Below, piece by piece: positions 1,164 to 57,343 of a DNA stretch of 64,000 nucleotides. Below the pieces are notes generated by a model that was given only the letters and a program-made list of their open reading frames with translations, was not told where the DNA came from and did not search any database. This DNA is from Sorghum bicolor (taxonomy: Eukaryota > Streptophyta > Magnoliopsida > Poales > Poaceae). A program made the position numbers and the translations under genes. The stretch is from contig NC_012871.2 of assembly GCF_000003195.3 (NCBI RefSeq), positions 58,209,802-58,273,801 of the forward strand. Reading direction: 5' to 3'. Each line of letters opens with the position of its first letter. Position 1 is the first letter of the stretch.

Positions 1164-1207
1164 GCGATGGACCTCGGCCTCTGCCTCGCATCAGCGCTTT
1201 CCCGTGA

Positions 1208-1697: not shown

Positions 1698-1725
1698 TAA
1701 AAAAGATAGTTCTTTTTGTATTTGT

Positions 1726-4171: not shown

Positions 4172-4199
4172 TTATTAATAAAACTAGGAGCTCATCGTC

Positions 4200-5887: not shown

Positions 5888-6083
5888 TAAATACTAATCA
5901 AAATAGTTGAGAGGATCGTTTTCACAATTTTTTTCGCCCTCGTTTTTTTAGCAATTTTCGCCCCCTTTCTGTGGATTGGAAAAGATCCTGATGGCTTTCG
6001 CCTTTCATTAATTTGCGATGGTGTTTTTAAGGAAATCACCACATTCATTACTGATTGAGCTGGTAGGCGTCAAGTGGAGGAAG

Positions 6084-9059: not shown

Positions 9060-9292
9060 CCTTAGTTCCGAAAATTTTTCGGTTTTCGGAACTGTAGCAA
9101 TTTCGTTTTTATTTGACAAAATTATCCAATCATGATTAACTAGACTTAAAAGATTCATCTTGTGATTTACAGGTAAACTGTGTAATTAGTTTTTTTTCGT
9201 CTATATTTAATGCTCCATGCATGTGCCGTAAGATTCGATGTGACGGGAAATTTTGAAAAGATTTTGGTTTTTTGGGTGAACTAAACAAGGCC
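9059..9292. mobile_element. Family A MITE abutting family B
   Basis: Begins in the terminal CCC of the preceding element (CCCTTAGTTCCGAAAATTTT) and ends GAACTAAACAAGGCC. Internal landmarks are well conserved (AAAAGATTCATCTTGTGATT, ATTCGATGTGACGGG). No clear target duplication because the left end is fused. Confidence 0.75.
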
Positions 9293-9479
9293 AAAATTAA
9301 CAAGCTATTGATACCTAGCTTCTCGTGACCCATAGCGCAATAAATAAAGTCACGGTTTTCAAAATTCCGAAGGATCCAAATACCCTCATCAGTTTCTGCT
9401 CATAATCCAGATTTTACAAACTAGAGGCAAAATCTGGTTTATATAGTCTGACTGAAAACCATTCAAAAAGCCTATGCGT

Positions 9480-17548: not shown

Positions 17549-18959
17549 CACTACTAGAAAACTGAGTATCCTTGAGGGCCAGCAATTTCTTTGAGGGGCG
17601 AAATTAAACCCCCAAGGATATACAATTACCTTGAGGGTTATATAAAACCCCCAAGAAAATGCATATTCTTGAGTGCTAAACCAAACCGCCAAGTTAAATC
17701 TATATTTCTTTGAGTGCTAGTTGAACCGCCAAGGTAATTCTATGTTTCCTTGAGTGTTATTATAAACCACCAAAGGTAATTCACATTTACTTGGGTGTAA
17801 CTAGACACCGTTAAGGAAGTTCTAGTTTCTTTGGATGTAAACCCTCAAGTAAATTATTGTAGCTGCCAAGGAAAAAACCGTTTACAGACATATTTCTCTT
17901 AACCACCGATATAGTGAACTCATTGCATTCTTGTTAGTTAGACATTGCATTTTATAGTGAACTCATTGCATTCAAGTAAATTTTTGTTAGTAAATTAATC
18001 CAATAAAAGTTATAATTTTGTGTTGTTATGCATTAGAGAATGCATATACTAGCACTTAGCTTGAGATGCCTGCTTATTTTAAAGCTAAAATGTAACATAA
18101 TATGGTATGGAGGCAAAGTTTATATCAAAGTTATAGAGCCGAAGAGATATACAACTTCTTAGTTGATGAATTTTTCATTTGAAATTATTTGAGGTCCATA
18201 AAATATGTTTTAAATTATTAGAACTTTAAACTTTAATTTTTTTTAATCTTTCAAATGACCTCAGATAGAGATACAACCTAAACCAAAGTTATAGTACTCG
18301 ATGAGATATAAAACTTTATAATTCAAACTTTTTTCATTTGAAATCATTTAGGTTCTCAAATATTCATTACAAGATCCACTAAAGTGAAAACAAAAGGAAA
18401 GAAACATTCACTTAGTCACAAAAGACTTCGTGGTGTAGTGGTAAGTTAGTTTCACATGAAGTATCAAGTCACGAGTTCGATTCTCAATGCATATCCTTGA
18501 GGGTCATCGGCACTCAAGAAAACATCTATCCTTGGGTATTTTTATATTTTCTTCTTTTTTCCATGCATATCCTTGAGGGTCATCGGCACTCAAGAAAACA
18601 TCTATCCTTGGGTATTTTTATATTTTCTTGGGTGCCATCGGCACTCAAGGAAACCTATATCCTTGGGTGTTTTTACATTTTCTTGAGTGTCATTGGCACT
18701 CAAGGAAACCTATATGCTTGGGTGTCGTTATATTTTCTTGATGATGTTAAAAATCTGGCCATTAATTTTTTTTCTTGACGGTTTGACTCTCGAGGAATTG
18801 ATTTGTGGGGGCCGACACTCAAGGAAATAGTATTTCCTTGTCTCTCTACCCTTGGCGGCCATTCCTTGAGTGCTAGCCGCCAATATGGATTTTCTTGGCG
18901 GTTTTAGGGGTTTCCTTGAGGGTTTTTGATCCTCAAGGGTATTCAGTTTTGTGGTAGTG
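17549..18959. mobile_element. Non-autonomous CACTA (En/Spm) element, TSD TAT
   Basis: Left end CACTACTAGAAAACTGAGTA pairs with the right end TTCAGTTTTGTGGTAGTG as an imperfect terminal inverted repeat. TAT flanks both sides (17546-17548 and 18960-18962), the 3-bp duplication diagnostic of CACTA elements. Both subterminal regions are full of CCTTGAGGG/CCCTCAAGG-type repeats in both orientations, as expected for transposase binding. A 50-60-bp unit around CCTTGAGGGTCATCGGCACT is tandemly repeated at 18489-18720. No transposase ORF, so it depends on a partner. Confidence 0.93.
18431..18483 (+). promoter_or_regulatory. Pol III-type internal promoter (A and B boxes) inside the CACTA element
   Basis: TGGTGTAGTGG at 18431-18441 fits the A box consensus TRGYNNARNGG exactly. 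GTTCGATTC at 18475-18483 fits the B box GWTCRANNC exactly. Spacing is 44 bp, in the tRNA/SINE range, and T-rich tracts follow at about 18547-18560. The surrounding sequence does not fold into a full cloverleaf, so this is tRNA-derived rather than a tRNA gene. Confidence 0.55.
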
Positions 18960-19204: not shown

Positions 19205-21545
19205 CCAGCACGTCTAGGGCTGGCGTGGCCAACTAGGCCGACGTAGCTAGGGGCAAGTGGCAGCTGCTGCATTGGGATTAGGATCACATTGGCAGAAATG
19301 GATGAAGTCGAAGAATCAGTCTGAGGTCGATGCGAGAACTGAGGGAATTGACGGTTGGTTCTGCTCTGCAACTTATCCGATATTTGAGTGTGTTCATCAT
19401 GGTGTGCTCGTGGATACAGTCTATAATGCAGGTCACGTTGGTAGGAAAAATGCACGATGCTTGTGGTGTCCACTGTGCTTTTTGGCCAGCTGTGGGCTAT
19501 GGCGGTGAATCAACAATCACTTCCCGAGCGTGGCCGGCGTGGCTAGGACGGTGTGGCTTCCCTAGCTAGCATGGCAGGAGGCGGTGCGGCCAACTAGGCC
19601 GCGATGACTAGGGGCAAGTGGCTGTGGCAACAAACCAACAGTGGCTGGGCACTGTCCGTAGCTGCTGCATTGGGATCAAGATCACAGTGGCAGATACGAA
19701 TGAAGCCGATGAATCGGTCTGAGGTCAATGCGAGAGCTGAGGGAATTAAGGGTTGGTTCTGCTCTACAACTTATCCGATATTTGTGTGTGTTCATCATGG
19801 CGTGCTTATGGATACAGTCTACAACACAGGTCGCAGTGGTAGGGAAAATGCATGATGCGCATGGTGCCCGCCGTCTGTTTCGGTCGACCGTGGGTCAAAA
19901 TGTCAACGGGGAACCGATTCCCCGCGGGGAATTCCCCTATTTGGTGATGGGTTTGGAGTAAAATCTCTTCCCACGGGAAGTTAAATGGGGCAAAATCTGT
20001 CCCCGTCGGGTTTCGCGGGGGCGGATCTGGTGTGCCTCCCCCCGTCCCCGTTCTCCGTGGAGACCCGATAATAATAAGACTATGCTCGATGTTTGGATTC
20101 TTAGTTGCTATTTCTAGTTGATGAATCACTTGTGGTGAATGTATGAACAATGTGATTGTTTCTGTGTTGTTATGAACTATGCAGTAGGCAATTATGGACA
20201 AATGGCTGTTATTTGCATGTGAATTATTGGATATTTTGCTGTTGTTTCTGTAAGTGAATTGCTGTTGTTTATATAATTGACGCGGGGACGGGGATCCCCG
20301 CGGGGATTTAATCCCCGAGCGGGGACGGGGATGGGGCAGGAGTTCTCCCCGTGACCTTTCACGGGGACGGGGATGGGGAAGAATTTGCCCCCGCAGAGAC
20401 GGGTTTGGGGCAGTAACCTCCGACGAGGAATTCCCCGTTGACACTCTTAACCGTGGGCCGTGGCGACGCATCAATGACGTCCCGAGCGTGGCTGGCTTGG
20501 CTAGGGCCCGCAGCGAACTAGGCCGTCGTGGCTAGGGGCAAGTGGTCATGGCAATAGTACATTGGGATGATGATCACAACAACACAAATGTTTGAAGCCG
20601 ATAAATCATTATGAGGTCGATGCGGGAACTGAGGGAATTGACGATTGGTTCTAATCTGTAACTTAGCTGGGAACTGAGGGAATTGACGAATGGTTCTGAT
20701 CTGCAACTTAGCTGATATTTATGTGTGTTCATCATGGTGTGCCCACAGATACAGTCTACAACATAGGTCCCGATGACAGGGAAAACACACGATGCGCGTG
20801 GTGTTCGTTGTCCGTTTCAGCCGATCGTGGGCTATGGCGGTGAATCAATCACGTCGCGAGCATGGCTGGCGCGGCCACCCAGGCCGACATGGCTAGAGGC
20901 AAGTGACCATGGCAACATACCAACGGTGGCTGGGCACCATCCATAGCTATAACATTGGGATCATGATCAAAGTGGCAAAAACGAATGAAGCCGATGAATT
21001 GGTCCGAGGTCGATCCGAGAACTGGGGGAATTGAGCCTTCGCAACTTATCCGATATTTGCATGTGTTCGTCAAGGCATGCCTGCAAATACAGTCTACAAC
21101 ACAGGTCGTGGTGGCAAGAAAAACACACGATGCGTGTGGTGTCTGTCTTCTGTTTCAGCCGGTCATGGACCCTATCGGCAAATCAATCACGTCCCAAGCG
21201 TGGTCGGTGCGGCCAACCAGGCCGACATGGCTAGGGGCAATTGGCTGTGGCAAGAGACCAATGGTGGTTGGGCATCATCCATAGCTACTGCATTGGGATC
21301 AGGATCACAGCGGCAGAAATGGATGAAGCCGATGAATCGGTCTAAAGTCGATGTGTGGTCCTCTCTACAACTTATCCGATATTTGCGCATGTTCATCATG
21401 GTGTGGCCGCGAATACAGTCTACAACACATGTCGCGGTGGTAGGGAAAACAAACGATGGGCCTAGTGTCAGTCATCCGTTTCGGCCAGTTGTGGGCCATG
21501 GCGAATGAATCACATCCGGAGCGTGGCGGGCGCGGCCTAGGCGGC
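19205..21545. repeat. Degenerate tandem array, about five units of 330-400 bp
   Basis: The motif ATTGGGAT recurs at 19271, 19669, 20561, 20954 and 21292. Each copy continues through a GATGAATCGGTCTGAGGTCG-like block, 'gggaattgacgg', CAACTTATCCGATATTTG, 'gtgttcatcatgg', ATACAGTCTACAACACAGG, and ends near 'ggctatggcggtgaatca'. After subtracting the hAT insertion the second unit is about 329 bp. The third unit contains a short internal duplication of GGGAACTGAGGGAATTGACG. No coding potential is conserved between units. Confidence 0.85.
19895..20449. mobile_element. hAT-type non-autonomous element, TSD ACCGTGGG
   Basis: Exact 8-bp flanks ACCGTGGG (19887-19894 and 20450-20457) are the hAT signature. 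Ends TCAAAATGTCAACGGGGAA and TTCCCCGTTGACACTCTTA are inverted. Subterminal GGGGACGGGGAT-type repeats occur near both ends and the centre is AT-rich. It splits one unit of the surrounding tandem array, so the array predates it. Confidence 0.92.
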
Positions 21546-23223: not shown

Positions 23224-23704
23224 TACTGTCTACTCTCTCAATTCCAGGTGTAGAAGTGATGTAGATGGGCTCTGCAGAAATGGGAATTTACAAACGAAGT
23301 ACTAGAAGACAGTACTAATTAATAAGAAATGGCAAAATGGAATTCTTTTACTGAAGTTTCCAGAGAAGTTTCTTGCTAATATTAGCATGTTGGTTCCAGG
23401 AGAAGAGGCTAATACTGAAAACGTCACCGAAACATACCTATTGTCTATGTTATGAGCTTCAAATCTTCAATCAACACATAAAAACAAATGGAGGGTTTGG
23501 TATGAGACGGCGTAACGTGCCTTTCCACGTCGGCCAAGAGACGCCTGTCCTGTCCACATATATTTTGTGAAACAAAACCAGCAGATACTACCGTACCGGC
23601 TCTGATCTGATCGATCACCTCAGGCCCTCAGGGCCGGTGTGCTCCATGCGCGCATGTCGTACCCTCTTCGAATCCATACATGCAGTACATTGCTTGGTTA
23701 CTTA

Positions 23705-23942
23705 GGCTGTGTTTAGTTTCTTAGAGAAAAATTTTATGATACTGTAGCACTTTCGTTTGTTTGTGGTAATTATTGTTCAACCATGAACTAATTAATTAGG
23801 CTCAAAAAATTCTACTCGTAAATTCCGATCAAACTGTATAATTAGTTTTTATTTTCGTTTATATTTAATACTCCAGTCTAAAGATTCGATGTGACGGAGA
23901 ATTTTGAAAAATTTTAGATTTTAGGATAAAAGTAAACAAGGC
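23705..23942. mobile_element. Family A MITE
   Basis: Starts GGCTGTGTTTAGTTTC after TTA and ends AAGTAAACAAGGC. Interior TACTGTAGCACTTTCGTTTG and AAGATTCGATGTGACGG are family landmarks. The right flank is altered, so the duplication cannot be confirmed. Confidence 0.8.
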
Positions 23943-41140: not shown

Positions 41141-41260
41141 GACACAATACCATTTTAATCACAAGAAGAAGAAGGAGGAGGAGGAGAAGGCGGCGGCATG
41201 CTGTGGGTCCCTTTCATAGCCGTCAAAAACAGAATTTGACACGAGTGATAAATTAATCTA

Positions 41261-41503
41261 GGCCTTGTTTAGTTAACCCTAAAAATCAAAAAGTTTTCAA
41301 GATTTCTCGTCATATCGAATCTTTTGGCGTATGCATGAAACATTAAATATAGATAAAAATAAAAACTAATTACACAGTTTAGCTGTAAATCACGAGACGA
41401 ATCTTTTGATCCTAGTTAGTCCATGATTGGATAATATTTATCACAAATAAACGAAAGTGCTACGGTACCGAAAACTTTTTACTTTTCGGAACTAAACAAG
41501 ACC
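41261..41503. mobile_element. Family A MITE (TSD CTA)
   Basis: From GGCCTTGTTTAGTTAACC to GGAACTAAACAAGACC. CTA on both sides (41258-41260 and 41504-41506). Confidence 0.87.
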
Positions 41504-41506
41504 CTA

Positions 41507-43734
41507 GTTGCTAAGATGCAGGCGTCGGTGGTTTTGTTAGGTCCGGACAATTTTTCCTCTCTCTATGACGTGTCTGGTGTGTTCAGGATACAGGATAGCA
41601 ATCAGCACAATCCAAGATCTGATGAGTCCTTATCATACCAAGGCATACATAGAAGAATATCCAAAATTCCCAGATTGGTCAAAGGCTCTTTCATTGCTTT
41701 TTCCATCCAGAATCCAACCAAATCCACCTAGACGCCCACGTTTGTATTCTCGATTGGTGTTTAGCTTCAAATTTCTTCATAGTGAATTAAAGTTGGTTAC
41801 ACGTGTTTGGAAACTGGTAATAAGAAGACAGAAATTCACTAGAAATTATTTAGAAAAAAATAAAACTAAATAAAAATGAAAATCATACTTCTGCCCCTTA
41901 CCTACAGGGGGTCAAATCACATATTCGACATGACACTCTGTGTGCTCACTGATGCTCGGTAGGTGATATAACAAATAGTCTATGTTGACTTCGTCAATCT
42001 CAAAATCAGTAGTATTTTATAAGCATTAATAGGACATTACCACATAAAACATTTGTAGAGTGATCGAATTTCGGTTGTAGGCTAGGACAGTTTTTCCAAT
42101 CACCCCTAACTAAACGTGTGTAGAATCAACCATTGCTAGAGGCAGGTATGTAATCACCATAAACATCAATTTAAGGAGCAGCTGGTAATGTTGCTATAAG
42201 GACCGATGTCCTAAGATGGAGGTACATTGGACTCTAAAAATAAAGCAACAATCTTAACCATCAAAACCCTAAGAGCTTTGACACATAAGTTCACAAAAGC
42301 AATTTATGAAGTCGTTAGGGCCATCACAACTAATTAAGACATTGGCAAGAAAAATTAGGACATTACACCTAATTAAGTCCTTAGCAAAAATTCACACTAA
42401 AAAATGAGTCCTTAAAAAAAATTAAACCTAAACTAAATACAACCATTCAATCCTAGTTGTCACTCAATAAAACTTGCATACAAACAAGTAAAGGAAAAGT
42501 GTACCTAGTTATTTGAACCAAGCAAGTTGGGTCCCCAAGCTTGGTTTTTCGTCCATTTTGTACCTCCATTCAAATAGTGGATATGTACATGTGAAACATT
42601 TAAACCAAAATCATTCATGGTTGACTTATGCCATTTCATATGTAACACTTTTGTGACATTTTTGACCAACCAAAATGTTGAGAAAATCATCGTCAACAGC
42701 TACTAGATTTGTGTAGGGAAGGCTTGCTTGTTTGTGTTAGGATAGGTGTGTGAAATATTAAAGATCACCTCCTTTATTAATATTGTACCTAGTTGTGTCT
42801 TTGTCTTTGAAGCAAACAATCTTTGAGGGTTTAGGGTTTAGGGTGCCAATTCATCAGATCCTTTCAACGCCTAGGAGATGAGATATAAAGGGTGGTGGCT
42901 GAGTCGCATCAGGAAGAGACGATGCGAGTTGGAGAGAGTGGGGCTGACCTTGGGCGCATTAGATTCTAGGTCTGGGGAAGGCTTTAGAATGGCCTTGGCC
43001 TTTTAACAGATGCGGGTCTATTCTGTTAATTAATTTTAGAAGATTATTGTCTGCTTAAATAAACCAACTGTTTTTAAACATTACTAGCTTTCTGGGAGGT
43101 AGTGCCAATTTGTGACCGTCTCCATAGATAAAATGGCTTGTCTCCTAAAATCAATTTTGTGGTATGCTGGGTAATTTAGATAAGATTTTAGGGGTTCTTT
43201 TGACTATTTTTCTAATGGCAAAAGTGTATAAATTTTTAGAAAATAAAACATATCTAATATCTCTTATTATTGGTAATGGTTAGAGTTTGCCGATATTTGT
43301 ATTTTTAAGAATTTCTAATATTTTTTTATCTTATCATGGCGTGGGTGGATTAACGTGATGCTTCTTTGAAGCCTCCAGTTTTCAGTAAGATTATAGGCCT
43401 ATGTGGAAGTGCTCTGCTATATAATTTTTAGTTTCTCTCCATGTTTCTCAGCTAAATAGGTGCAGCTCTACAAACTTTGCTCCATAAAACGATAGAATTG
43501 AGAGAAAAAGGGTGTTGAAAAACTCTACCTTTTTTGGAGCTACTCTATTCCTTGCTCCCCTAAAAAAGCATCCTTTGTACTAGGCTGTGTATACTGCTTA
43601 ATTGTTATCCAAGTTATGTTCTTGTAATCATAATTGTTAATTCATTTCGATTGCCAAGATCATATTAGTAACAATTCGGGATATATAGTAAAATATACGA
43701 CAAAAAATGACATGACATGGTTATCTTACTTAAC
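41507..43734. other. Intergenic spacer without a supported gene
   Basis: AT-rich. It contains a short telomere-like run (TTTAGGGTTTAGGG at about 42829) and no credible coding region or complete element. Confidence 0.5.
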
Positions 43735-43737
43735 TAA

Positions 43738-43979
43738 GGCCTTGTTGAGTTCACTCAAAAACCAAATTTTTTTTTAAATTTCCTGTCACATCAAATCTTT
43801 CGACACATATATGGAGCATTAAATATAGATAAAAACAAAAACTAATTACACAGTTTGTCTGTAAATCGCGAGACGAATCTTTTAAGCATAGTTACTCTAT
43901 GATTAGACAATGTTTATCAAATAAAAATGAAAGTGGTACAGTGTCAAAATCTAAAAACTTTTTGGATCTAAACAAGGCC
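43738..43979. mobile_element. Family A MITE (TSD TAA)
   Basis: From GGCCTTGTTGAGTTCAC to GGATCTAAACAAGGCC. TAA on both sides (43735-43737 and 43980-43982). Confidence 0.88.
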
Positions 43980-43982
43980 TAA

Positions 43983-45179: not shown

Positions 45180-45267
45180 TAGTCTCAATGCATGTTTCAT
45201 GAAAATGTCATGCACATTAAATATGGTGCCACATAAGCAAAATTGCTGACTTGTCAGGGTCGAGTTT
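45180..45267. mobile_element. Family D MITE, left half, split by the Gypsy retrotransposon
   Basis: AGTCTCAATGCATGTTTCAT here pairs with ATGAAACTATGCATTGACAC at about 57317-57336, on the other side of the 12-kb retrotransposon. The right half (57232-57343) continues with the family's TTTCATCCCCATGAAACTC block. Removing the insert and one AGTTT restores a continuous element. Confidence 0.82.
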
Positions 45268-45341
45268 TTTTGGTTCCATAATAAGGGATACCCAACTCAG
45301 AGCAATGAAAAAACGCAAAGAAACGTACTAACCACAATCAT

Positions 45342-45645
45342 CAGGGCCTCGGACGCAAGTTCCGACTCGCCCGACCCCTCAGGGCATCGGACGCAAGTTC
45401 CGACTCGCCCGACCCATCAGGACCTCAGACGCAAGTTCCGACTCGCCCGACCCCTCAGGGCATCGGACGCAAGTTCCGACTCGCCCGACCCCTCAGGGCC
45501 TCGGACGCAAGTTCCGACTCGCCCGGCCCCTCAGGGCATCGGACGCAAGTTCCGACTCGCCCGACCCCTCAGGGCCTCGGACGCGAGTTCCGACTCGCCC
45601 GGCCCCTCAGGGCCTCGGACGCAGTTTCCGACTCGCCCGACCCCG
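45342..45645 (+). repeat. 38-bp tandem repeats in 5' LTR, 8 units
   Basis: Unit CAGGGCCTCGGACGCAAGTT plus CCGACTCGCCCGACCCCT. Alternate units read 'gggcctcgg' and 'gggcatcgg', so the array has probably grown by 76-bp pairs. The last unit differs (CGCAGTTTCC). Confidence 0.96.
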
Positions 45646-46101
45646 TCCAGGCTCGGGCGCCGGACCCCACTCCGCCTGGGCAGCAAGACTTCCACCGCAC
45701 GGCGCCCGTACCCACGACATGACAGACGCGACGGCTTCCATACCGCGGCAGGGCAAGGCGATAACTATTCCAACCACCCTGGTCACTGTGGCCTTACCTC
45801 TGTCACTGTACATCCTTACCTCTTTCGCTGTAGCGTACTGACGCACAGTAAAAAGGGAATGGGAGAGGTAAAATCAGCACCACTGTTTGGGGTCTTTTCC
45901 CACTAGTGACGGGATGTGCAGCAGTGCTGGCGATCCGACCCCCGCGACCCCTACAGGGCTCGGTAACCCTCTACAGGAACAGCCATGCCGTCAACCATCC
46001 CTCAAGGACGAGATGGACCAGCCTCAACAGGGTCGGGACTGTGGTTTCACCATTCAATAAAAGACATCTACTCATGTAAATACCTGGCCTTCCCTTGAGG
46101 C

Positions 46102-46108
46102 TATAAAA
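46102..46108 (+). promoter_or_regulatory. TATA box of the 5' LTR
   Basis: TATAAAA in TTGAGGCTATAAAAGGGGAG, about 325 bp before the LTR end. The same motif occurs in the 3' LTR at 56906-56912. Confidence 0.8.
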
Positions 46109-46429
46109 GGGGAGCCGGGGTTCACAACTAAGGGGAAGTTCAGAAGGTTCACACACGCAACATTCTTTCACAGAGCAGCAGCCCGCACTCTGTCCACACC
46201 AAGCCGAGACCTGGGACTTAGCCCTCTCTCGCAACCAGCTTGTACCCCCTACTGCAAGCACCTTTGGGTGCAAGGTTATACAGAATCCACAGCCACACTG
46301 GACGTAGGGCGTTCTTGGCCTGAACCAGTATAAACCCTCTGTGTCTCACTTGCATCACCATCCAAGCTTGGTCAGTCACGCAGACTTATACTTGTTAGTG
46401 CCTAGACCGCGAGTCTAGACGCCGACAGT

Positions 46430-46447
46430 TGGCGCGCCAGGTAGGGG
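46430..46447 (+). promoter_or_regulatory. Primer binding site
   Basis: TGGCGCGCCAGGTAGGGG begins 2 bases after the LTR end. TGG at the start complements a tRNA CCA tail. I do not assign the primer tRNA with confidence. Confidence 0.8.
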
Positions 46448-46489
46448 CCTTCTGCGTGACATTCACCTGTCCCTACTAGGAAGGTTTGG

Positions 46490-47032
46490 ATGGCGGACGG
46501 ATTTCGCCCGCTCTGTCGCGGCACCATCATGGTGTTTGGGAGTTTGGAGTTCATGTCGCTTGGTTCCGGCTACGACATGGTCCTCCTCCCGCCACGTGAC
46601 GACGTCGAGCCTAGCCCCGAGCCGATCCCACCACAGTCAGTGTGTGGGAGACATTCGGGACACCATGCGGGGGGCTCACGGAGGGGGCGTCAGAGATCTA
46701 GGATCTCCGACCCTACCTCTGAGGCTAGGACCCGTCCGGCCTTTCCCCCGCATATTCCTCATCAGGTCGCCCGATCCTCCGGCCCGACAGGCGCTAGAGG
46801 AAGGGCTCGCGGGGCATCAAGCCCCGGTCTCAGGACCAATAGAGGATCATCGCGGCCTCCCGTTCCGCCCCGGTCGAAGGGGAAGGCAAGGACCACACCC
46901 GTCCCCCGCAAGGGGGACAAAGGGGCCTCAACATCCCATCCTCCTCCACCTACGGATGAAGGAGCAGCGCGGCACCTCCTGAGTTACCTTTTGGGCTCAG
47001 GAATGCCGCCGCCACCTACGCCTCTTCCGTGA
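46490..47032 (+). pseudogene. gag: Gypsy gag N-terminal-type ORF (180 codons)
   Basis: First open frame after the primer site. Proline/arginine/serine-rich and low complexity from about residue 45, with no named domain. It closes with a stop whose last bases overlap the next ORF's start in another frame. In related elements this region is the long disordered gag N-terminus, so the split into three frames (46490, 47029, 47898) most likely reflects indels; a true separate leader ORF is the alternative. Confidence 0.55.
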
Positions 47033-48147
47033 GCACTTCATTAAGTGCGTACGCGGAACTTCCAGGGCACCATTTGAGGTCTACACTGGACTTCGTCTCC
47101 ACACCGCCCGTCTCATCATACCCAGAGGACCTAACCTCGGGCGACGACGAGTGGGCTGACGCTGATTTCTCCGGGTGTGGCGACCCGGAGACTTTCATGC
47201 GCTTCTTGGAGGCCAGCAACTATTGTCTCGGCTACTCCGACTCTGACGACGGAAGCTACGATCCGTCACGAGAGTGCTTCAACTTAGAAGTCGGAGGCAC
47301 GCCGCATGACGCCCAGGGGGACGCAGGGCCCTCTAGACAAGAGGACGCAACTCCACCTCCCAATCCAACTCCCGGAACCAATCCCGGAGCCCGTGAGGTA
47401 GCATCTGCCCCCGCTGGGGGACACCGTCCTGACCTCGCACAGCTCGATGAGCTGGAGGCCAGGCTCGAAGAAGAGCGCACACGCCTCCGCCAACTCCGCG
47501 AGGCCCTGGTCCGAGAGCCATCAGGCCGCGGGGATGGGGGCGAGGCTAGACGCCGCGCCCGTGACGTCAACCGCCGTATCATCGAGGACCAAGGGGGTGA
47601 CGCCCCAGTCTTCAGCACGGCCAGCCAAAACGTGATAGCCGCTGCGCTCCTCCTCAGGGCGATGCCCGAACCATCGACCCCTGAGGGAAGAAGAGTGCGC
47701 CAGGGGTTACGTGGCCTCCTGGAGCAGGCTGTGGTGCAGAACGCAGAGAGTTCTGCCTCACAATCCCATAACACAAGACGTCGTGGGGACCGACCCCCCC
47801 GAACAAGGCACCAACGGTACAGGGTCCGCCGCTCGCTGACCCCCAAAGGGGCGACAAGGCCCCGTCGGTACACGAGCGCGTCGGAGCAGGCGCGGACGTG
47901 CGGGCCACCCTCGAGGCCAGGCGACGCGACAGGGACGAAGCCGAGTCCCGACGTTACCGACCCCGCCGAGGTGGGAGGTACGACCCCGATCACGATCGCA
48001 GCACGTCACCAGAGCCTCCGGGTCCCCGCGTCTTCAGCGAGGACATACGCAGGGCCAAGTTCCCGGCGCGATTCCGACAGCCCGCCAACCTCACCAAGTA
48101 CTCAGGGGAAACGAATCCTGAGCTCTGGCTGGCGAATTACCGCCTAG
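47029..48147 (+). pseudogene. gag: Gypsy gag middle region ORF (372 codons), frame-shifted from the gag core
   Basis: Acidic N-terminus (SGDDEWADADFSGCGD), then a probable coiled coil at about residues 137-165 (LDELEARLEEERTRLRQLRE), then arginine-rich sequence. From about 47898 the meaningful reading moves to another frame, where the conserved gag core begins. The end of this ORF is therefore out-of-frame translation. No other homology recognised. Confidence 0.6.
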
Positions 48148-49808
48148 CATGCCAGCTAGGCGGCGCGGATGACGACCTTCTCATCATCCGCAACCTCCCA
48201 CTCCACCTGGCCGATACGGCCAGGGCATGGCTCGAGCATCTCCTTGAGCGCATGATCCATGACTGGACTGACCTGGTCAGAATCTTCGTCGGGAACTTCC
48301 GGGGCACATACATGCGCCCTGGGAACTCCTGGGACCTCAGGAGCTACCGGCAGAAGCCTGACGAGTCCCTCCGAGACTTCATCAGGCGATTCTCCAAACA
48401 ATGCACCGAGCTCCCCAACATCACGGACTCCGACGTGATCGGAGCCTTTATTTCCGGTACCACCTGCAAGGAGTTGGTACACGAGCTCGGACGCAAGACC
48501 CCCACGAGCACTAGCCAGCTGCTCGACATCGCCACCAACTTCGCCTCAGGCGAAGAGGCAGTCGGCGCCATTTTCTCCGACGGCGCAGCCAAGGGGAAAC
48601 AGAAGGCCGAGGCCACCGAAGCCTCAGGATCACGCGACCCCAAGAAGAAGAAGAAGGGTCGCAAGGGGAAGCAGGGTCAGTCGGACGACCACCTAGTCGC
48701 CGCGGCTGATCGCAAGAACCCCAAGAGGGCTCCCGCTGGCCCCGGCCTCTTCGACGAAATGTTGAAGAAGCCGTGCCCCTATCACAGGGGGCCAACCAAA
48801 CACACCCTTGAGGAGTGCACCGTCCTCCGTCGGTACTATACCGACATCATCACCAAGGAGAGTGCCGAAGAGCCTCCCAAGGACGACGACCCCGAGGGGG
48901 AGGTTTTCCCCAAGATCAAGAACTGCCTTCTGATCTTTGGGGGACGCGCGGCTCGCCTCACTGCGAGTCAAAGGAAGCGCGAACTCCGAGAAGTCTGCGC
49001 AGTCAGCACAACCGCGCCCTCGTACCTCAAATGGTCTGAGAGCGCGATCACGTTCGACAGGCAGGATCACCCGGATCGGATTCCCAATCCAGGGAGCTAT
49101 CCGTTGATCGTCGACCCCGTCATCACCGAGACCCGTCTCACTAAGGTGCTGATGGATGGAGGCAGCGGCCTCAACATACTCTACGCCGAGACTCTGGCCC
49201 TCATGGGGATCAGCAAGTCCCGGCTGAGGAACGACACTGCGCCATTCCATGGAGTGGTGCCAGGACATCGTGCCCACCCCCTCGGACAGATCGATCTGCC
49301 CGTCTGCTTCGGGACCCCCGACAACTTCAGACGAGAGGTCCTCACTTTCGACGTGGTTGGGTTCCCAGGGACCTACCACGCCATTCTGGGACGACCATGC
49401 TACGCCAAGTTCATGGCCATCCCTAACTACACCTACCTCAAACTCAAGATGCCAGGGCCAAAGGGCATCATCACCGTCAGCACGACCAGTCAGCACGCCT
49501 ACCAGTGCGACGTCGAGTGCGTCGAGCAGGCCGAGGCTCTAGCAGAATCTCTGGCCATTCTTACCGGCCTCGGCGACTGCGACCAGGACGTCCCCGACCC
49601 CAAACGTCACGCCGAGAGCTTCGAACCGGCGGAGGAAACTAAGCTAGTCTTCCTCGACCCCAGAACCTCTGAGGGCAAGGCGTTGAGGATCAGCTTGTAC
49701 CCTCGGGCGTCCTCATGCGGTGCATCCCACGTCAAGAGGGGGTCAAGCTCCTACAGGACATTCACTCAGGGGCTTGTGGCCATCACGCCGCGCCTCGGAC
49801 GTTGGTAG
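47898..49808 (+). pseudogene. gag-pro: Gypsy gag core plus aspartic protease, broken before RT
   Basis: Residues about 55-190 fit the retrotransposon gag domain (PF03732-like; LANYRLACQLGGADD, TARAWLEHL, SLRDFIRRFSKQ). A lysine-rich stretch follows at about 250-260 (KKKKKGRKGKQG). The CCHC knuckle is reduced to CPYHRGPTKHTLEEC at about 293-307. A protease domain follows at about 390-540, with VLMDGGSGLNILYAETL in place of the usual DTGA active site and ILGRP near the flap end. From about residue 600 the reading is out of frame, because a deletion has joined protease to integrase. No reverse transcriptase follows. Confidence 0.85.
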
Positions 49809-50809
49809 GAAATGCCTTCCGACAAGGTTTCTACTGGCCCACCGCCGTAGCCGACGCCACAGAGATCGTCAGGGCCTGTAAGGGATGTCAATTTTATGCC
49901 CGGCAGATACATCTACCCGCTCAGGCCCTGCAAACGATCCCCATCACCTGGCCTTTCGCTGTCTGGGGCCTCGACCTGGTCGGGCCTCTGCAGAAAGCGC
50001 CCGGGGGCTTCACACACTTACTTGTCGCCCTCGACAAGTTCTCCAAGTGGATCGAAGTCCGACCCATTACAAGGATCAAGGCTGAGCAAGCAGTGTTGTT
50101 TTTCACGGACATCATCCATCGATTTGGGGTGCCGAACTCCATAATCACCGACAACGGCACACAGTTCACCGGGCGAAAGTTCTTGCAGTTCTGCGACAGA
50201 CACCACATACGTGTGGACTGGGCGGCAGTGGCTCACCCCAAGACCAACGGTCAAGTGTAGCGTGCCAATGGCATGCTCCTCCAGGGTTTGAAGCCCAGGA
50301 TTTTCAACCGACTGAACAAGTTTGGAAAAAGGTGGCTCAAAGAGCTACCAGCCGTCGTCTGGAGTCTGAGAACCTCCCGAAGCCGAGCCACAGGCTTCAC
50401 CCCGTTCTTCATGGTCTACGGGTCGGAAGCTGTCCTCCCTACTGATCTGGAGTACGGGTCCCCGAGGGTACAAGCCTACGATGAAAATAACGGCAAAACA
50501 TTCCAAGAAGACGCGCTGGACCAGCTGGATGAAGCCAGGGATGTAGCCCTCCTACACTCTGCCAAATACCAGCAGGCCCTCCGCCGATACCACGCACGAT
50601 GAATCCGAGGCCGAGCCTTTCAAGTCGGCGACTTGGTGCTGAGGCTCAGACAAAGCAACAAGGGTCGTCACAAGCTCACACCCCCCTGGGAAGGACCTTT
50701 CGTCATCGCCGAGGTTCTCCGACCCGGCACTTACAAGCTCGCCAATGAAGCAGGGGAGGTCTTCAGAAACGCATGGAACATAGAACAGCTACGTCGCTTT
50801 TACCCCTAG
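49715..50809 (+). pseudogene. int: Gypsy integrase with two in-frame stops
   Basis: Starts in the HHCC zinc-binding region (H..GACGHHA, ACKGCQFYA). The catalytic core follows, with first Asp in WGLDLVGPL, second in IITDNGTQFTG, then AHPKTNGQV; a stop (50258-50260) falls exactly where the third catalytic residue of the D,D-35-E triad is expected. The frame continues through ANGMLLQGLKPRIF, the GFTPFFMVYGSEAVLP block and a second stop at 50600-50602. It ends with GDLVLRL and GPFVIAEVLRPGTYKL, a C-terminal SH3-like part without chromodomain. Not functional as it stands. Confidence 0.9.
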
Positions 50810-51387
50810 AACTTTTGTAAAAATTTTCGTTTGTTCATCATCATGGAGGAATAAATGAAAATTTAAGTTATATGGCCCTTTTTTGTCAGGGAGCCTCGGA
50901 CCTGCCCAGCAGAGTCCCAGCCTCCCTCGGGGGCTACTTAGGGGGGAACCCCCCGTGTCAGCTCTAAACCTTTTTCCTTTTTTCGCGCAAGTTAAAAGAA
51001 CTCCGACCCATGGTCCTTTCCCCCTTTTCTCTTAGAAAGTTTTAGGGAAACCGGAAACTCACCCCGCAAATCTTAAGGCATGAGCACTAGGAAAGGTCAG
51101 CGCTCACGAGCAAGGGACCGCTCCTACTCACCTTAGATCCGCGGGACGGATTCGGACCTCTAAAAAACCACTAAGGGAAAAAGGAAGAGGACTTCGGCTT
51201 GGGGTTTCTGGTTACCGCAAGGAACTTACCCGACCTCGCGCTGCCGAGGTCGGATCGGCATAAGGAAAAAGAAAACAGCTTAAAGAGCCATTAAACAAAT
51301 ATCTGCATTCAACATTAAACATTGTATATATATGTTACACGGCCCACCGGCCTCAACACCCACAAAAAGAAAAATAAACTAAGAATC
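50810..51387 (+). other. Retrotransposon spacer between integrase and the antisense gene
   Basis: No open frame of note. A-rich sequence with AATAAATGAAAATTT follows the integrase stop. It also forms the 3' flank (terminator region) of the antisense gene. Confidence 0.6.
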
Positions 51388-54300
51388 CTACTGCCCTGTC
51401 TGCCCAGGTCCTTGAGCCCCGAGGGGGGGAAGCTCCACCTCGTCGTCGAAGAAGGTGGCCAAGGCATCTCCGGGGGCAGCCACGGCGTCCTCAAGCCTCT
51501 GCACCTCCTCCTGGGCCTCAGTCTCATCATCCGGGAGAACGTAGCCCTCACAGACTGCCGGCAAATCAATGCCGGCTTAGTGAGAGCTCACCACCGCCAG
51601 GGCTTTCTTCACCCCGGCGTGGAGTGCCTCCCTCATCCTCTCCCCGGCCTGGGAGTAAAGGGCTTCGACCCGACTGCGCAACGACGACCCCGACGCCGAT
51701 ACCCCGAGCCCCTCACACGCCGAGGTAACCACGGCTTCAAGAGCCGAGCGGTCTGAAGCCTCGGCGTCAAGGGACCTTTGTAGGGCCTCGGCAGCAGAGG
51801 ACGTCTCGACCACCTTCCTCTCCAATTCTGGTTGAAAAACAGAGTAAGAAGCAAAAAGTCAAGAAAAGCCAACTCAAAAAGTATAAAGGAGTCCGGGGTA
51901 AAGGGTGCAAGTCTTACCCTCGGCACGCCTCTCGTGCTCCGCCGAGCTCTGATGCCAGCGGGCCACCTCGCTCAGAGCCGCGGACAGGTCGGTCTGGGAT
52001 TGGTTCAAGGCAAGGTCTTTCTCGGCGAGCAAAACTTCAAGCCGAGCGACCTCACCCTTGTACCCCTCAGCCGCCGCCTTCTGCGCCTCAGACTCTTGGG
52101 TGAGGACCCCAATCCTCTCCTCTAGGGGGGCGACCTTATCCCGGGCCTCCCGAGCCTCGGTGGCCAGTGTCGAGCACTTCTGCCGAAGCTCGGCAGAAAT
52201 CTCGCACTCCTTCGCGAGCTCTCCCTCTGCCGCCTCCCTGGCAGCCCTCTCGTTCTCGAAGGACGCCCTAGCATCCCTTTCCCGACGGAGAAATACTGAC
52301 TTCTCCAGGGAGGTGGCCTTGAGCGCCTATAAGATCGAAAGTCACACGGGGAGTAAATATCGCAAAGCAAGGACAAAATTACTTCACAACACGGGTGAAA
52401 ATCTTACCTGAGCCAGATTGAACATGTCACGGCCCACGAGCTGAGAAGCTCGGTTAAGGGCCTCGACACCAGCGCGCCCACACGCGTCCAGACCCTGCCA
52501 GAGGTAATTCTCTGACGGGTCATCCAGAACGAATCTGGCTCCCCCCTCGGCATCGTCAAGGTTGGGCCAGATTACGGGGCTCTTGCCCCATCCGGCACCT
52601 TTCTCCCCTCCCGCCGCGGGGGCCTCGGGCGCCGCGCTGGACACCACGATGGCTCGGCCTCCCTCGGTATGCGCAGGTCGGCCCGCGCCCCCCAGATCAG
52701 CATCTCCCGAAGGAGGCGCAGCCTCGGGGGCAAGGGCCGTCCTCTCCGGTCCTTGGGGCTTCGGCGCCCCCGTGTCTTGCCCCTGGTGACGCCCTGCCTC
52801 CTCGTAGCCCGGAGGTGGCGGCGACACGGGCCTAGCCGACCCGGGGGTTGACTGAGCCCCCCTCTTCACAGCTTTCAGGGGGGCCAGCGCCACCGAAGGC
52901 GCCTTTTGCTTACGGATGGAGGGACAATATCAAGTTAGAAGAAAGAGAAAAACAAAAAATCAGCAGAAGGATCAGGAATCCTATCTCTACCTCGCCCGAG
53001 GAGCAGACTTCTTATGGGAGCTCGGCGCTCCTTGGGGGTCTCCCGCGGTGCCAGGGGCCGTCGGTTGGACCCCTGCCTCGCCTGCCGACGGCGCAGGAGG
53101 CGCCATGATGGCCTCGGCCTGCGACACCTCCACGGGGGCACTGGCTCCCGCCCCGGACGTTGGGGAGGGCTCGGCCCGACCCTCCGGCACTACTGGGTGA
53201 GGGGGCTCCTCGAGCTCTACCCCCGACGCCTTCTCCCCCTCTTGGGGGCTCACGGGGGCTGGATCCTCGCGTGGGGCACTGTCCTCGTCTTCCACAACGA
53301 TGTGGGGGACGGGCTGCCCGCCCTCCGGTGCCTGGGTCCCCTCGGGGGCCTCCGACCCACCTCGGGCCATTGACCCCTCTGGGGCCTCGATCTCCCCGGC
53401 AGCAGGGACTGTGTCGTCCTCCTCCATCAGCTCATCGAGCCAGTCGACGTCGCCGCCCCCGCCCTCTATCTCCGAGACCGAAGTCTCGGGAGACGGAGGC
53501 GGGGCGACCCTCGCCTTCTCGGCTTCACGATGACTTTTGGCGGAGATCTCCCGCCGCTCCGCTTTTCGCGCTGCTTTGGCCTTCTTGTCCTACTTGGCCT
53601 TCTTCTGCTCCTCGTTCCGGGCCCGATTCTTGGCCCGGATTTCCTTGTCCTCTGGGACAGGGGGTGGGGAATCCTTGACAACCCCCATCCTCTGCGAACG
53701 ATCAGGAGTCAAGGAAAAGGCAAGAAGAAAACGAGAAGAAGGCGCAAAAAATCCATACTTACCAGGGAAATGTAACCCTTTTCAGGGCGCATCGGCACTA
53801 CCCGGGAATTTTTCATCTCCGGGTGCGTCGTCTTCTCGACCCGGGCGGTGATGTCCGAGGCCGATATCGGCTCAGCCAACATCCTCGTCCCTGCCCAGGG
53901 GACCCCCCGGGTCATCTCGAACATGGGCACTCGCCGCTGCGCCAACGGAAGCAAACTCCTCTTGTGGAAGGCGATTGCCACCGTCGCCGCGGTGACTTCG
54001 GCATCTCGCAACTTCTGAAGCCCCGCGAGAAGCGGGGCGAGCTTCTTCTGCTCCTCGGACGGAGCGCCCCACGCCCACTTCATGGGAGCCTCCGTCACCA
54101 TCTTCCCGGTATACTTTGGCAGCAAACCGCCGTCATTCCAGAGGTAGAACCACCCGCTCTGCCACCCCCAGTTCGACGACGCCATCGAACTCCAGATATA
54201 CAATCCGGACCGCTGCTCACGAAGCTGCAGCGTGCAGCCACCGGCCCGCAGAGGGATCTTCTCCTTCCCTATGTAGCGGGCCGACATGTCCGCCTTGAAG

Positions 54301-54653
54301 AGGTGAAGCCAGAGGTTCCAGTTGACCGGAACCCCCAGGAACCCCTCACAAACCGTGGTGAAGACGGTGGCCTGCATCACCGAGTTTGGGTTCAGGTTGT
54401 GTAACTCCACCTCGTAGTGGTGGAGGATGGCCCTGATCAGGCGGCCGGCCGGAACCCCGAACCCCCGGTCTAAGAACGACAGGAAGCACACCACATAGCC
54501 CGGCGGCGGGTTTGGCTCCCTGTCGTTCGCCGAGGGAACGATCCATTCCGGGAAACCGACGTCCTTGAGAGGGCGGAGAATCCCGGCCTTCACGCGCGCC
54601 TCCAGCGCGGACTTGGTCACATTGCTGGGCGGCCACGCCTCGATGCTGGCCAT
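51388..54653 (-). pseudogene. Antisense additional gene (aORF) of the Gypsy element: PF04195-like domain plus coiled coil, 5 exons
   Basis: Predicted exons on the minus strand: 54653-53763, 53691-52991, 52902-52408, 52326-51918, 51827-51388, each with GT/AG borders. Exon 1 (297 codons) starts MASIEAWPPSN and contains the hallmarks of the 'putative gypsy-type transposon' domain (PF04195): YVVCFLSFLDRGFGVPAGR, ELHNLNPNSV, CEGFLGVPVNWNLWLHLF. Exon 2 is basic then acidic/proline-rich. Exon 4 is almost wholly a coiled coil (A..EAREARDKVAPLEERIG). In-frame stops occur in exon 2 (TAG, 53592-53590) and exon 5 (TAA, 51579-51577), and my exon 2/3 junction is out of phase, so this copy is broken or spliced differently. 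Function in the family is unknown; retained antisense position suggests a role in the element's life cycle. Confidence 0.82.
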
Positions 54654-54778
54654 GGCTCCGAGAGGAAGAGGAGAGTCTGCGCGGTGGAGGTGGAAGACAT
54701 GGCGGCAGATGAAGGGGCAGGAGGCAGAGGTTTTGTGGCGCAGGAGCGAGAGGAAAGAAACCAGACCCACAGCGGCCG

Positions 54779-54786
54779 CTTTTATA
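54779..54786 (-). promoter_or_regulatory. TATA box for the antisense gene
   Basis: On the minus strand TATAAAAG lies about 130 bp upstream of the MASIEAW start, in GC-rich sequence, giving room for a 90-100 nt leader. An (AG)n run (54832-54849) lies just upstream. Confidence 0.65.
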
Positions 54787-54863
54787 GAAGGAGGCGAGCC
54801 ACGACCACGCCCCTGCGAGGAAGGCCAGGCGAGAGAGAGAGAGAGAGAGCAACCGTCGCCCAC

Positions 54864-55994
54864 TCAGGTGAAAAAACTCGAAAGCGCCAACTCCCTCCGA
54901 TTCCCGCGCCCACCGCACGCACGCATTAATTTCGCAGGCGAAACGTCCCATCCAGCCGGGGCGAGACGGCACGGCCGTTTCGAGTCCCCACGCGCCGCGC
55001 CTCAAAAGGAGCGCCCTGAAAAGTTATATCAGGACGGTTCCTTCCAGGGGACGCGGCGCCCGACCGCCCGCGGACCAAGTGTCACAGGGAGGTCACCGTC
55101 AGGCGCAGTTTTCCGTCTCGCCCGACCCCATCAAGACCCCGAGCTGAAGTTGCAAAGTGGTCTCCTGTCGGGCGCAGATTCCGTCTCGCCCGACCCTCAA
55201 CACTACAGAACGAGTCTAAAAAAAGCCTTTCGAGGCCCAAAATCCCCAGGCCATGGCCACCTACGTTCCAGAGGTTGCGAGACTGACCTGCGAAACAGGT
55301 TCGAACAGTCGCCTCAGGATGACTGAGCGAGGGATGACTGGAGATGAGCACGATAGAGGCCAAGGTCCGAGCCCAACAGGGAGTCGGCGCATCTTTGCAA
55401 GTCATATCCGAGACCCATGCGGGTGTCACGTGAGTGGGATCCCATCGAGGGAGGCATCGAGCCCTCGGAACCTAACGAACGGTTCCGACACCCACCGTGA
55501 CTGCCCTCGGGTACTTTTTGAGATGTGCCCATAAGGCCACTAGCCGACCCCTATCGAACGGGGCTCGGGCATCCACTCGGATCTACCCGCCTGTAGCTCC
55601 CGGGAAGCGTCGTCACTCGCCCAACGAGGGTAGTACGGCACGACCCACCCCTCCTCCGAGCGAAAGGAAGAATGAGGGACGTAATTACAAGACGAGAAAG
55701 AACCTGATCGACCCTCGCGGGGAAAGGGCTCGGGGGCTTCCTCGCACCATGGGAACAGGCACTACGTGTAAAGAACACGCAACCTATCCCTTAAAACACT
55801 CCAGACTAAAGATGTCAAGGGGTGAAAGCCTTTGAAGGAATAACACCATTCCTCCAAAAGGCTCGAGGGCTACACCCGGCGGGTGCGCTCGCGCGCACCC
55901 CCCGGAGAAGAGTAAAAGGCTCCGAGTCGACTACAGCTCGTGGGGAAAGAACCTCTAAAGAGGTGACCTCACCCCTTCAGAGGCTCGGGGCTAC
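54864..55994 (+). other. Non-coding 3' region of the Gypsy element, degenerate LTR-like repeats and polypurine tract
   Basis: Two decayed units related to the LTR 38-mer (GGCGCAGATTCCGTCTCGCC type) lie at about 55097-55195. The last bases, AGAGGCTCGGGGCTAC, precede the 3' LTR and take the polypurine-tract position, though purine content is imperfect. Similar 'aaaggctcgagggctac' text occurs earlier at about 55857, a possible second tract. Confidence 0.55.
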
Positions 55995-57231
55995 TGTTGG
56001 GTACCATAATAAGGGATACCCAACTCAGAGCAATGAAAAAACGCAAAGAAACGTACTAACCACAATCATCAGGGCCTCGGACGCAAGTTCCGACTCGCCC
56101 GACCCCTCAGGGCATCGGACGCAAGTTCCGACTCGCCCGACCCATCAGGGCCTCGGACGCAAGTTCCGACTCGCCCGACCCCTCAGGGCATCGGACGCAA
56201 GTTCCGACTCGCCCGACCCCTCAGGGCCTCAGACGCAAGTTCCGACTCGCCCGGCCCCTCAGGGCATCGGACGCAAGTTCCGACTCGCCCGACCCCTCAG
56301 GGCCTCGGACGCAAGTTCCGACTCGCCCGGCCCCTCAGGGCATCGGACGCAAGTTCTGACTCGCTCGACCCCTCAGGGCCTCGGACACGAGTTCCGACTT
56401 GCCCGGCCCCTCAGGGCCTCGGACGCAGTTTCCGACTCGCCCGACCCCGTCCAGGCTCGGGCGCCGGACCCCACTCCGCCTGGGCAGCAAGACTTCCACC
56501 GCACGGCACCCGTACCCACGACATGACAGACGCGACGGCTTCCATACCGCGGCAGGGCAAGGCGATAACTATTCCAACCACCCTGGTCACTGTGGCCTTA
56601 CCTCTGTCACTGTACATCCTTACCTCTTTCGCTGTAGCGTACTGATGCACAGTAAAAAGGGAATGGGAGAGGTAAAATCAGAACCACTGTTTGGGGTCTT
56701 TTCCCACTAGTGACGGGATGTGCAGCAGTGCTGGCGATCCGACCCCCGCGACCCCTACAGGGCTCGGTAACCCTCTACAGGAACAGCCATGCCGTCAACC
56801 ATCCCTCAAGGACGAGATGGACCAGCCTCAACAGGGTCGGGACTGTGGTTTCACCATTCAATAAAAGACATCTACTCATGTAAATACCTGGCCTTCCCTT
56901 GAGGCTATAAAAGGGGAGCCGGGGTTCACAACTAAGGGGAAGTTCAGAAGGTTCACACACGCAACATTCTTTCACAGAGCAGCAGCCCGCACTCTGTCCA
57001 CACCAAGCCGAGACCTGGGACTTAGCCCTCTCTCGCAACCAGCTTGTACTCCCTACTGCAAGCACCTTTGGGTGCAAGGTTATACAGAATCCACAGCCAC
57101 ACTGGACGTAGGGCGTTCTTGGCCCGAACCAGTATAAACCCTCTGTGTCTCACTTGCATCACCATCCAAGCTTGGTCAGTCACGCAGACTTATACTTGTT
57201 AGTGCCTAGACCGCGAGTCTAGACGCCGACA
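55995..57231 (+). repeat. 3' LTR of the Gypsy element (1237 bp)
   Basis: TGTTGGGTACC...GACGCCGACA. Differs from the 5' LTR by a few substitutions (for example near 56504, 56646, 56682, 57049 and 57125) and by two extra 38-bp units. Confidence 0.96.
56070..56449 (+). repeat. 38-bp tandem repeats in 3' LTR, 10 units
   Basis: Same unit and alternation as in the 5' LTR. The diverged final unit is shared, so the extra pair was gained or lost inside the array. Confidence 0.96.
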
Positions 57232-57343
57232 AGTTTCATCAGATGAGAGAGAAGTTTCATCCCCATGAAACTCATATGGCTCGGTTACCTAGTTTATAAT
57301 CTTGGTAAGTGTGCCATGAAACTATGCATTGACACTGACCTAA

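What the first reader, a model, noticed from the sequence alone, without database searches (positions are those of the whole stretch)
51388..54786. Antisense five-exon gene with its own TATA box inside the retrotransposon
A spliced, minus-strand gene (PF04195-like domain then coiled coil) sits between integrase and the 3' LTR with a clear TATAAAAG upstream. Antisense extra ORFs are known in Tat-lineage Gypsy elements, but the role of this domain is not established. A sense genomic RNA would overlap the whole antisense mRNA, so the two could form double-stranded RNA or the antisense protein could regulate the element. The introns in antisense would also be invisible to sense splicing, which protects the gene through retrotransposition.
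Basis: partly seen in the sequence, partly recalled or inferred. Interest (0 to 1): 0.78.

Follow-up and report, generated by a model that had tools for sequence, protein, structure and literature searches.

The report
Spliced antisense gene inside sorghum retrotransposon
A jumping element in what appears to be the sorghum genome carries, on its opposite strand, a five-exon gene whose protein and splice sites look kept by natural selection across copies of its family, although this particular copy is broken; antisense genes of this kind are already known in the lineage, but this spliced structure was not described in the papers that could be read.

Summary
The five-exon, minus-strand gene (TATA 54786-54779, ATG 54653, last codon 51388) is real at family level. 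Across 30 genomic copies exon 1 has dN/dS 0.14 in the predicted frame against 1.5 and 1.9 in the other two of that strand; exons 2-5 give 0.43, 0.21, 0.35 and 0.38/0.18. Splice dinucleotides are kept in 25-30 of 30 copies (introns 1-3) and 15 of 16 (intron 4); no precisely intron-less copy was seen. A second family in the same genome, 24-31% identical in exon 1, has a like five-exon plan under like constraint. This copy, however, is dead: stops in exons 2 and 5, lost acceptor of intron 2, a private deletion of about 2.1 kb where reverse transcriptase/RNase H should be, a stop in integrase. Antisense PF04195 (TRP28) genes are a known mark of Retand elements (PMC11963269), and the protein-regulator and dsRNA ideas are in print (PMC7264820). 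New here: the separate antisense ORFs are exons of one selected gene, and its introns persist through retrotransposition. Function is inferred: a nuclear regulator of the element.

The parts
45268..57231 (+). whole LTR retrotransposon (Ty3/gypsy, Retand-type layout), target duplication AGTTT at 45263-45267 and 57232-57236
   Evidence: LTR alignment and flanks
45268..46427 (+). 5' LTR; begins TT where the 3' LTR begins TG; 38-bp tandem array, 8.0 units
55995..57231 (+). 3' LTR; 38-bp tandem array, 10.0 units
   Evidence: downstream of the arrays the LTRs differ at 5 of 783 bases
47772..49695 (+). gag and protease region (PF03732; protease by eye; the ORF runs on to 49808 across the deletion junction)
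49695..49696 (+). private deletion junction of about 2.1 kb; no reverse transcriptase or RNase H found in this copy
   Evidence: of 40 scored matches only the window's own runs across it; distance to exon 1 is 2140 and 2142 bases longer in two other copies
49696..50602 (+). integrase (PF17921, PF00665), in-frame stop at 50258-50260
54779..54786 (-). TATA box TATAAAAG of the antisense gene, 133 bases before the ATG
   Evidence: exact in 28 of 30 copies; 8 of 330 local 8-mers, itself included, as conserved
53763..54653 (-). exon 1, PF04195 (TRP28) domain; dN/dS 0.144 (30 copies)
53692..53762 (-). intron 1 (phase 0); GT 30 of 30, AG 29 of 30
52991..53691 (-). exon 2, proline- and acid-rich; in-frame TAG at 53592-53590 in this copy; dN/dS 0.430 (29 of 30 copies)
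52916..52990 (-). intron 2 (phase 2); GT 28 of 30, AG 25 of 30; acceptor lost in this copy (AT at 52917-52916)
52408..52915 (-). exon 3; dN/dS 0.213 (27 of 30 copies)
52327..52407 (-). intron 3 (phase 0); GT 28 of 30, AG 27 of 30
51918..52326 (-). exon 4, heptad-patterned (coiled-coil-like); dN/dS 0.345 (16 copies)
51828..51917 (-). intron 4 (phase 1); GT 15 of 16, AG 15 of 16
51388..51827 (-). exon 5; TAA at 51579-51577 in this copy only (1 of 16); last codon at 51388 is a stop in 9 of 16 copies; dN/dS 0.376 before (13 of 16 copies) and 0.180 after (16) the TAA

Best explanation
This is a decayed copy of the antisense accessory gene of a Retand-type Ty3/gypsy element of sorghum. In the family, RNA polymerase II starts at an internal TATA promoter about 1.2 kb inside the 3' LTR and transcribes back towards integrase; four introns of about 70-90 bases are spliced out and a protein of roughly 980 residues (the length varies between copies) is made: a TRP28 globular head (exon 1), a proline- and acid-rich linker (exons 2-3) and a coiled-coil-like tail (exons 4-5). 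The protein most likely acts in the nucleus, in trans, on the element's own DNA or chromatin to control expression or integration. Because the RNA that is reverse-transcribed is the sense strand, in which the introns read backwards, they are not removed and the whole gene is copied with the element. Shown here by comparison: gene structure, selection on all five exons, intron retention, conservation of the TATA motif. Inferred: transcription, splicing, nuclear place, regulatory role.
For: dN/dS of all five exons below 0.45 in the predicted frame. Variants shared by three or more copies are mostly silent in exons 1 and 3, while singletons are near the neutral expectation: exon 1 N:S 23:72 against 93:66 (expected ratio 1.86); 20 of 21 nonsense variants at biallelic sites of exons 1-3 are singletons. 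So selection acts on the copies that multiply and ends after insertion. Splice sites and TATA conserved. Like five-exon plan and constraint in a second family of this genome, exon dN/dS 0.088, 0.228, 0.275, 0.182, 0.168, next to integrase at 0.028 and 0.098. An NCBI sorghum model splices junctions 1-2 and 3-4. Confident exon-1 model. Published: maize Grande's antisense gene23 has its own promoter and a nuclear product (review PMC7264820, passages).
Against: No RNA data. This copy carries two in-frame stops and a lost acceptor. The DNA-binding or regulatory role rests on published prediction and analogy; the exon-1 model matches no solved structure. Pairwise dN/dS and the Fisher tests treat related copies as independent, and the copies analysed are the best-scoring ones. 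Exon 2 is only moderately constrained (0.43; shared variants N:S 62:58). Two sense-strand frames also give values below 1: 0.235 over exon 1 (7 stops in this copy) and 0.513 over exon 2 (2 stops). Six of 16 copies do not stop at 51388, so the true 3' end is uncertain. In family 2 a strict TATA motif was found upstream in 9 of 16 copies only.
Confidence: 0.62

Rival explanations
1. The antisense transcript, not its protein, matters: it pairs with genomic RNA, is diced to small RNAs and limits the element.
For: Full overlap with the sense RNA follows from the layout; the idea is in print (PMC7264820, passages). TATA motif conserved.
Against: An RNA-only role predicts no codon pattern; instead all five exons have dN/dS 0.14-0.43 in one frame each. 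It may still act in addition.
Confidence: 0.12
2. The protein is an anti-silencing factor, like VANC of Arabidopsis VANDAL elements (recalled, no call), that lifts methylation from the family so that copies can be transcribed.
For: A nuclear product and a coiled coil would fit; constraint is seen in the copies that multiply.
Against: No sequence or fold link to any known factor was found. Nothing here tests methylation.
Confidence: 0.2
3. The gene serves the replication cycle itself, for example nuclear import of the pre-integration complex, packaging or target choice.
For: Constraint on exon 1 of family 2 (0.088) equals that on the second part of its integrase (0.098); a role like that of retroviral accessory proteins, import among them, is discussed in PMC7264820 (passages).
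Against: A separate promoter and antisense orientation uncouple it from gag-pol dosage; no interaction evidence.
Confidence: 0.2
4. Passive debris: a captured host gene or nested insertion drifting with the element.
For: This copy is broken.
Against: dN/dS far below 1 in every exon in two families; shared variants of exons 1 and 3 mostly silent.
Confidence: 0.03

Closest known systems
Retand-lineage elements with antisense TRP28 (PF04195) ORFs (PMC11963269; abstract, section 11 part 1 of 2, and discussion read)
   Same: Domain, antisense orientation, place between integrase and 3' LTR; here that stretch is 5.4 kb, within the published 2.9-6.6 kb
   Different: The paper counts separate antisense ORFs, and the word 'intron' does not occur in its text; here the ORFs are exons of one gene with dN/dS support. 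RT phylogeny cannot be done on this copy
maize Grande gene23 (Gomez-Orte et al. 2013, not read; passages of review PMC7264820 read)
   Same: Antisense gene after pol, own promoter, nuclear product
   Different: No sequence comparison made; whether gene23 has introns could not be seen
rice RIRE2 antisense ORF (Ohtsubo et al. 1999, not read; named in PMC7264820)
   Same: Position and orientation
   Different: Not compared here
HTLV antisense genes (named in PMC7264820 and PMC11963269)
   Same: Antisense accessory gene in a retroelement (that it is spliced is recalled)
   Different: Antisense promoter there lies in the 3' LTR (PMC7264820); relation of the proteins not tested; analogy only

Membership tests
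Retand lineage (Tat group, Ty3/gypsy) | placement by reverse transcriptase phylogeny | not testable with these tools
   no RT in this copy; letters of other copies' pol were not available
Retand lineage (Tat group, Ty3/gypsy) | gag, protease, integrase in Ty3/gypsy order | tested here: met
   PF03732 then PF17921 and PF00665 in sense; protease seen by eye only
Retand lineage (Tat group, Ty3/gypsy) | long region between pol and 3' LTR (2,933-6,566 bp published) | tested here: met
   50603-55994, 5,392 bp
Retand lineage (Tat group, Ty3/gypsy) | antisense ORF with TRP28/PF04195 | tested here: met
   65.3 bits, exon 1, minus strand
Retand lineage (Tat group, Ty3/gypsy) | LTR 315-1,194 bp (published range) | tested here: inconclusive
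   5' LTR 1,160 bp inside; 3' LTR 1,237 bp slightly above, with two more 38-bp units
functional antisense accessory gene (Grande gene23 type) | own promoter active in antisense | tested here: inconclusive
   TATA conserved in 28 of 30 copies; activity not testable
functional antisense accessory gene (Grande gene23 type) | protein-level selection | tested here: met
   dN/dS 0.14-0.43 over five exons
functional antisense accessory gene (Grande gene23 type) | intact coding capacity in this copy | tested here: not met
   stops in exons 2 and 5, acceptor of intron 2 lost
functional antisense accessory gene (Grande gene23 type) | nuclear product | not testable with these tools
   no expression data

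The most novel reading that the evidence does not exclude
Antisense orientation is a general shelter that lets a multi-intron gene live for tens of millions of years inside an element that replicates through RNA. The many antisense ORFs reported in Retand elements of flowering plants (TRP28, SMC-like and others) are exons of one ancient spliced gene whose head has a fold not yet in the PDB and which acts as a trans-acting nuclear regulator of the element.
Probability: 0.35. Interest if true: 0.75.

Novelty: new variant of a known kind. Interest (0 to 1): 0.52.

Why it matters
Introns are normally lost when a gene passes through an RNA copy. A five-exon gene kept by selection inside a retrotransposon, because it is encoded backwards, shows how such elements can carry complex genes. 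It also turns a set of unexplained antisense ORFs in a widespread plant lineage into one testable gene with defined exons, promoter motif and a confidently modelled head domain.

Tried and rejected
Rejected: exon 3 starting after AAAAG at 52903 (out of frame by one; other copies show the acceptor 13 bases upstream). Rejected: a conserved upstream ORF at 54700 (ATG in 1 of 30 copies). Rejected: an RT-less, non-autonomous family; the junction is private to this copy among 40 scored. Rejected: a partly spliced retrocopy; L073 lacks intron 4 and the start of exon 5, but the break lies at two GCCGAG repeats and is not splice-precise. Led nowhere: first structure model from 40 close sequences (pLDDT 40); structure and PDB-sequence searches; viral contigs; Pfam at E up to 1 for a link to other retrotransposon domains; a first alignment with loci in mixed orientation (redone). 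Dropped rows: L009-L012 of 20 family-2 loci (no blastn piece to L023); L069 of 16 fetched exon 4-5 stretches (351 of 1101 bases align); L057 of 30, and sites with more than two letters there; copies with more than 12% gapped codons; family-2 integrase used the 11 loci that matched of 20 in the file. Family-2 loci were 20 that I chose, mainly from the top, of 150 listed of 4325 candidates; family 1 was the best 40 of 482, of which 30 had letters; exons 4-5 were fetched for 16 of these.

Full report
What the window is. The genome search places the window at G000:C2:58209802-58273801 in a 709-Mb, 846-contig genome. The best protein hit with an organism name is an uncharacterised Sorghum bicolor protein on a contig exactly as long as C9, and the chromosome lengths fit sorghum as I recall them; the species name rests on that.

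The element. Two LTRs (45268-46427 and 55995-57231) are flanked by AGTTT on both sides. Downstream of the 38-bp tandem arrays they differ at 5 of 783 bases, so the insertion is young (about a quarter of a million years at a recalled grass rate of 1.3e-8 per site per year). Sense genes: gag (PF03732), protease by eye, integrase (PF17921, PF00665) with an in-frame stop at 50258-50260; no reverse transcriptase or RNase H in the ORFs scanned. Searching the genome with 49300-50000 gave 40 scored matches of 4314 candidates: the window's own copy matches through, the other 39 end at query position 396 or 397. In two copies, taking the nearest exon-1 match as the same element, the distance from exon 1 to this point is 2140 and 2142 bases longer. 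So a private deletion of about 2.1 kb lies here; its size and place fit RT/RNase H, but the letters of the other copies' pol were not read.

The antisense gene. TATAAAAG lies at 54786-54779, the ATG at 54653. Exons: 54653-53763, 53691-52991, 52915-52408, 52326-51918, 51827-51388; phases 0, 2, 0, 1; 2,949 bases in register. The introns have 42-46% T against 10-19% in exons, measured on nearly the same boundaries. PF04195 scores 65.3 bits in exon 1. Exon 2 is rich in proline and acid residues; exon 4 has a heptad signal that 16 of 500 shuffles reach, exon 5 one that 36 of 500 reach.

Family 1 test. Searching with exon 1 gave 40 matches (92-100%) of 482 candidates; 30 came with letters (L029-L058; L029 is the window's own). 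TATA exact in 28 of 30; TATA-ATG distance equal in 23 of 30. Splice dinucleotides: donor 1 30, acceptor 1 29, donor 2 28, acceptor 2 25, donor 3 28, acceptor 3 27 of 30; intron 4 both ends 15 of 16. Intron-internal dinucleotides are kept on average in 19.1 of 29. Pooled pairwise dN/dS (Nei-Gojobori): exon 1 0.144 (30 copies; other frames 1.47, 1.94), PF04195 part 0.107 (1.31, 1.76), exon 2 0.430 (29 copies; 1.15, 0.91), exon 3 0.213 (27; 1.65, 1.33); exon 4 0.345 (16; 1.24, 0.93), exon 5 0.376 (13; 0.82, 1.44) and 0.180 (16; 1.45, 1.06). Against a clean contrast: in the short PF04195 part the median pairwise values of the other frames were 0.80 and 0.54, on the 98 and 43 of 435 pairs with enough silent change; and one sense-strand frame each over exon 1 (0.235, 7 stops in this copy) and exon 2 (0.513, 2 stops) is low. 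I take the last two as mirrors of the antisense wobble sites.

Timing of selection. Among 29 copies, exon 1 sites with a variant in one copy are N 93, S 66, nonsense 5; in two copies 12, 20, 0; in three or more 23, 72, 0 (expected neutral N/S 1.86). Exon 2: 120:40, 24:12, 62:58; exon 3: 135:28, 36:15, 13:33. Fisher p for singletons against three or more: 1e-7, 8e-5, 7e-12, to be read with care because copies are related. This is the pattern of a gene selected in the copies that multiply and released after insertion. By raw reading 18 of 30 copies keep exon 1 open and in length register, and 4 of 30 show no stop in exons 1-3.

Intron retention. No copy of 30 lacks intron 1, 2 or 3 precisely (lengths 66-113, 62-97 measured to 52903, 66-106), and none of 16 lacks intron 4 precisely. 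The spliced exon 1-2 junction pattern has 0 matches in the genome at up to 2 mismatches; 28 of 30 copies would meet it if spliced, so this covers near relatives only. The intended unspliced positive control did not complete. This fits copying through the sense RNA.

Family 2. Sixteen of 20 fetched high-scoring PF04195 loci align to one of them at 75-98%. Protein identity of these loci to the window's exon 1 is 24-31% (19 of 20 found). They too show five exons: L023 1821-2708, 2778-3241, 3316-4130, 4204-4329, 4404 onward, with each GT or AG kept in 15-16 of 16, dN/dS 0.088, 0.228, 0.275 (16 copies), 0.182, 0.168 (15 copies), other frames 1.15-2.32 (exon 2 measured to 3230, exon 5 to 4930). Phases are 0, 2, 1, 1, so introns 1, 2 and 4 agree in phase with family 1 and intron 3 does not. 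Integrase of the same family gives 0.028 and 0.098 (11 copies). A strict TATA[AT]A was found in 9 of 16 upstream stretches, so the promoter claim is weaker there.

Independent model. NCBI's sorghum protein LOC110430389 (P0022) joins exon 1 to exon 2 and exon 3 to exon 4 at these junctions, but skips from mid exon 2 to mid exon 3 and starts at an inner methionine; whether RNA supports it is unknown.

Literature. PMC11963269 (abstract, section 11 part 1 of 2, section 12): all but two of 63 Retand clusters carry antisense TRP28 ORFs, 104 antisense ORFs counted, DNA binding predicted, regulatory role proposed; 'intron' does not occur. PMC7264820 (passages): Grande gene23 own promoter and nuclear product; protein and dsRNA roles both proposed; the authors ask for a look at antisense and spliced transcripts; 'intron' does not occur. 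PMC6317226 (passages): PF04195 in 23% of Retand elements. Searches of the open library (listings) showed no title or abstract opening on a spliced antisense gene of such elements, but papers that were not readable here (Gomez-Orte 2013, Ohtsubo 1999; Steinbauerova 2011, cited in PMC7264820) may describe introns.

Verdict. Observation largely right, in a dead copy of a family whose antisense gene is under protein-level selection. The kind is known; the five-exon structure, its conservation in two families and the intron-retention evidence extend it.

Noticed in passing
45341-45644 and 56069-56448: A 38-bp tandem array inside each LTR, 8.0 units in the 5' and 10.0 in the 3' LTR, so the two LTRs of one insertion differ in unit number.
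   Followed up: partly
54700-54620, minus strand: An upstream ATG that would overlap the main start exists in this copy only (1 of 30).
   Followed up: yes
50258-50260: In-frame stop within the integrase of this copy.
   Followed up: no
2085-2332, 5440-5893, 8300-8538, 9051-9300, 23699-23942, 41253-41503, 43730-43980: A family of about 180-250-bp repeats in both orientations, 78-85% alike, looking like a short dispersed element.
   Followed up: no
18487-18741: Tandem units containing the palindrome-like CTTGAGTGCCATCGGCACTCAAG.
   Followed up: no
L073 (G000:C10:8078246-8079346): A copy whose intron 4 and start of exon 5 were lost between two short GCCGAG repeats, which imitates intron loss.
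   Followed up: yes
19262-21537: Overlapping direct repeats of 200-500 bp at 76-87% identity, including a 338-bp unit in 1.9 copies.
   Followed up: no
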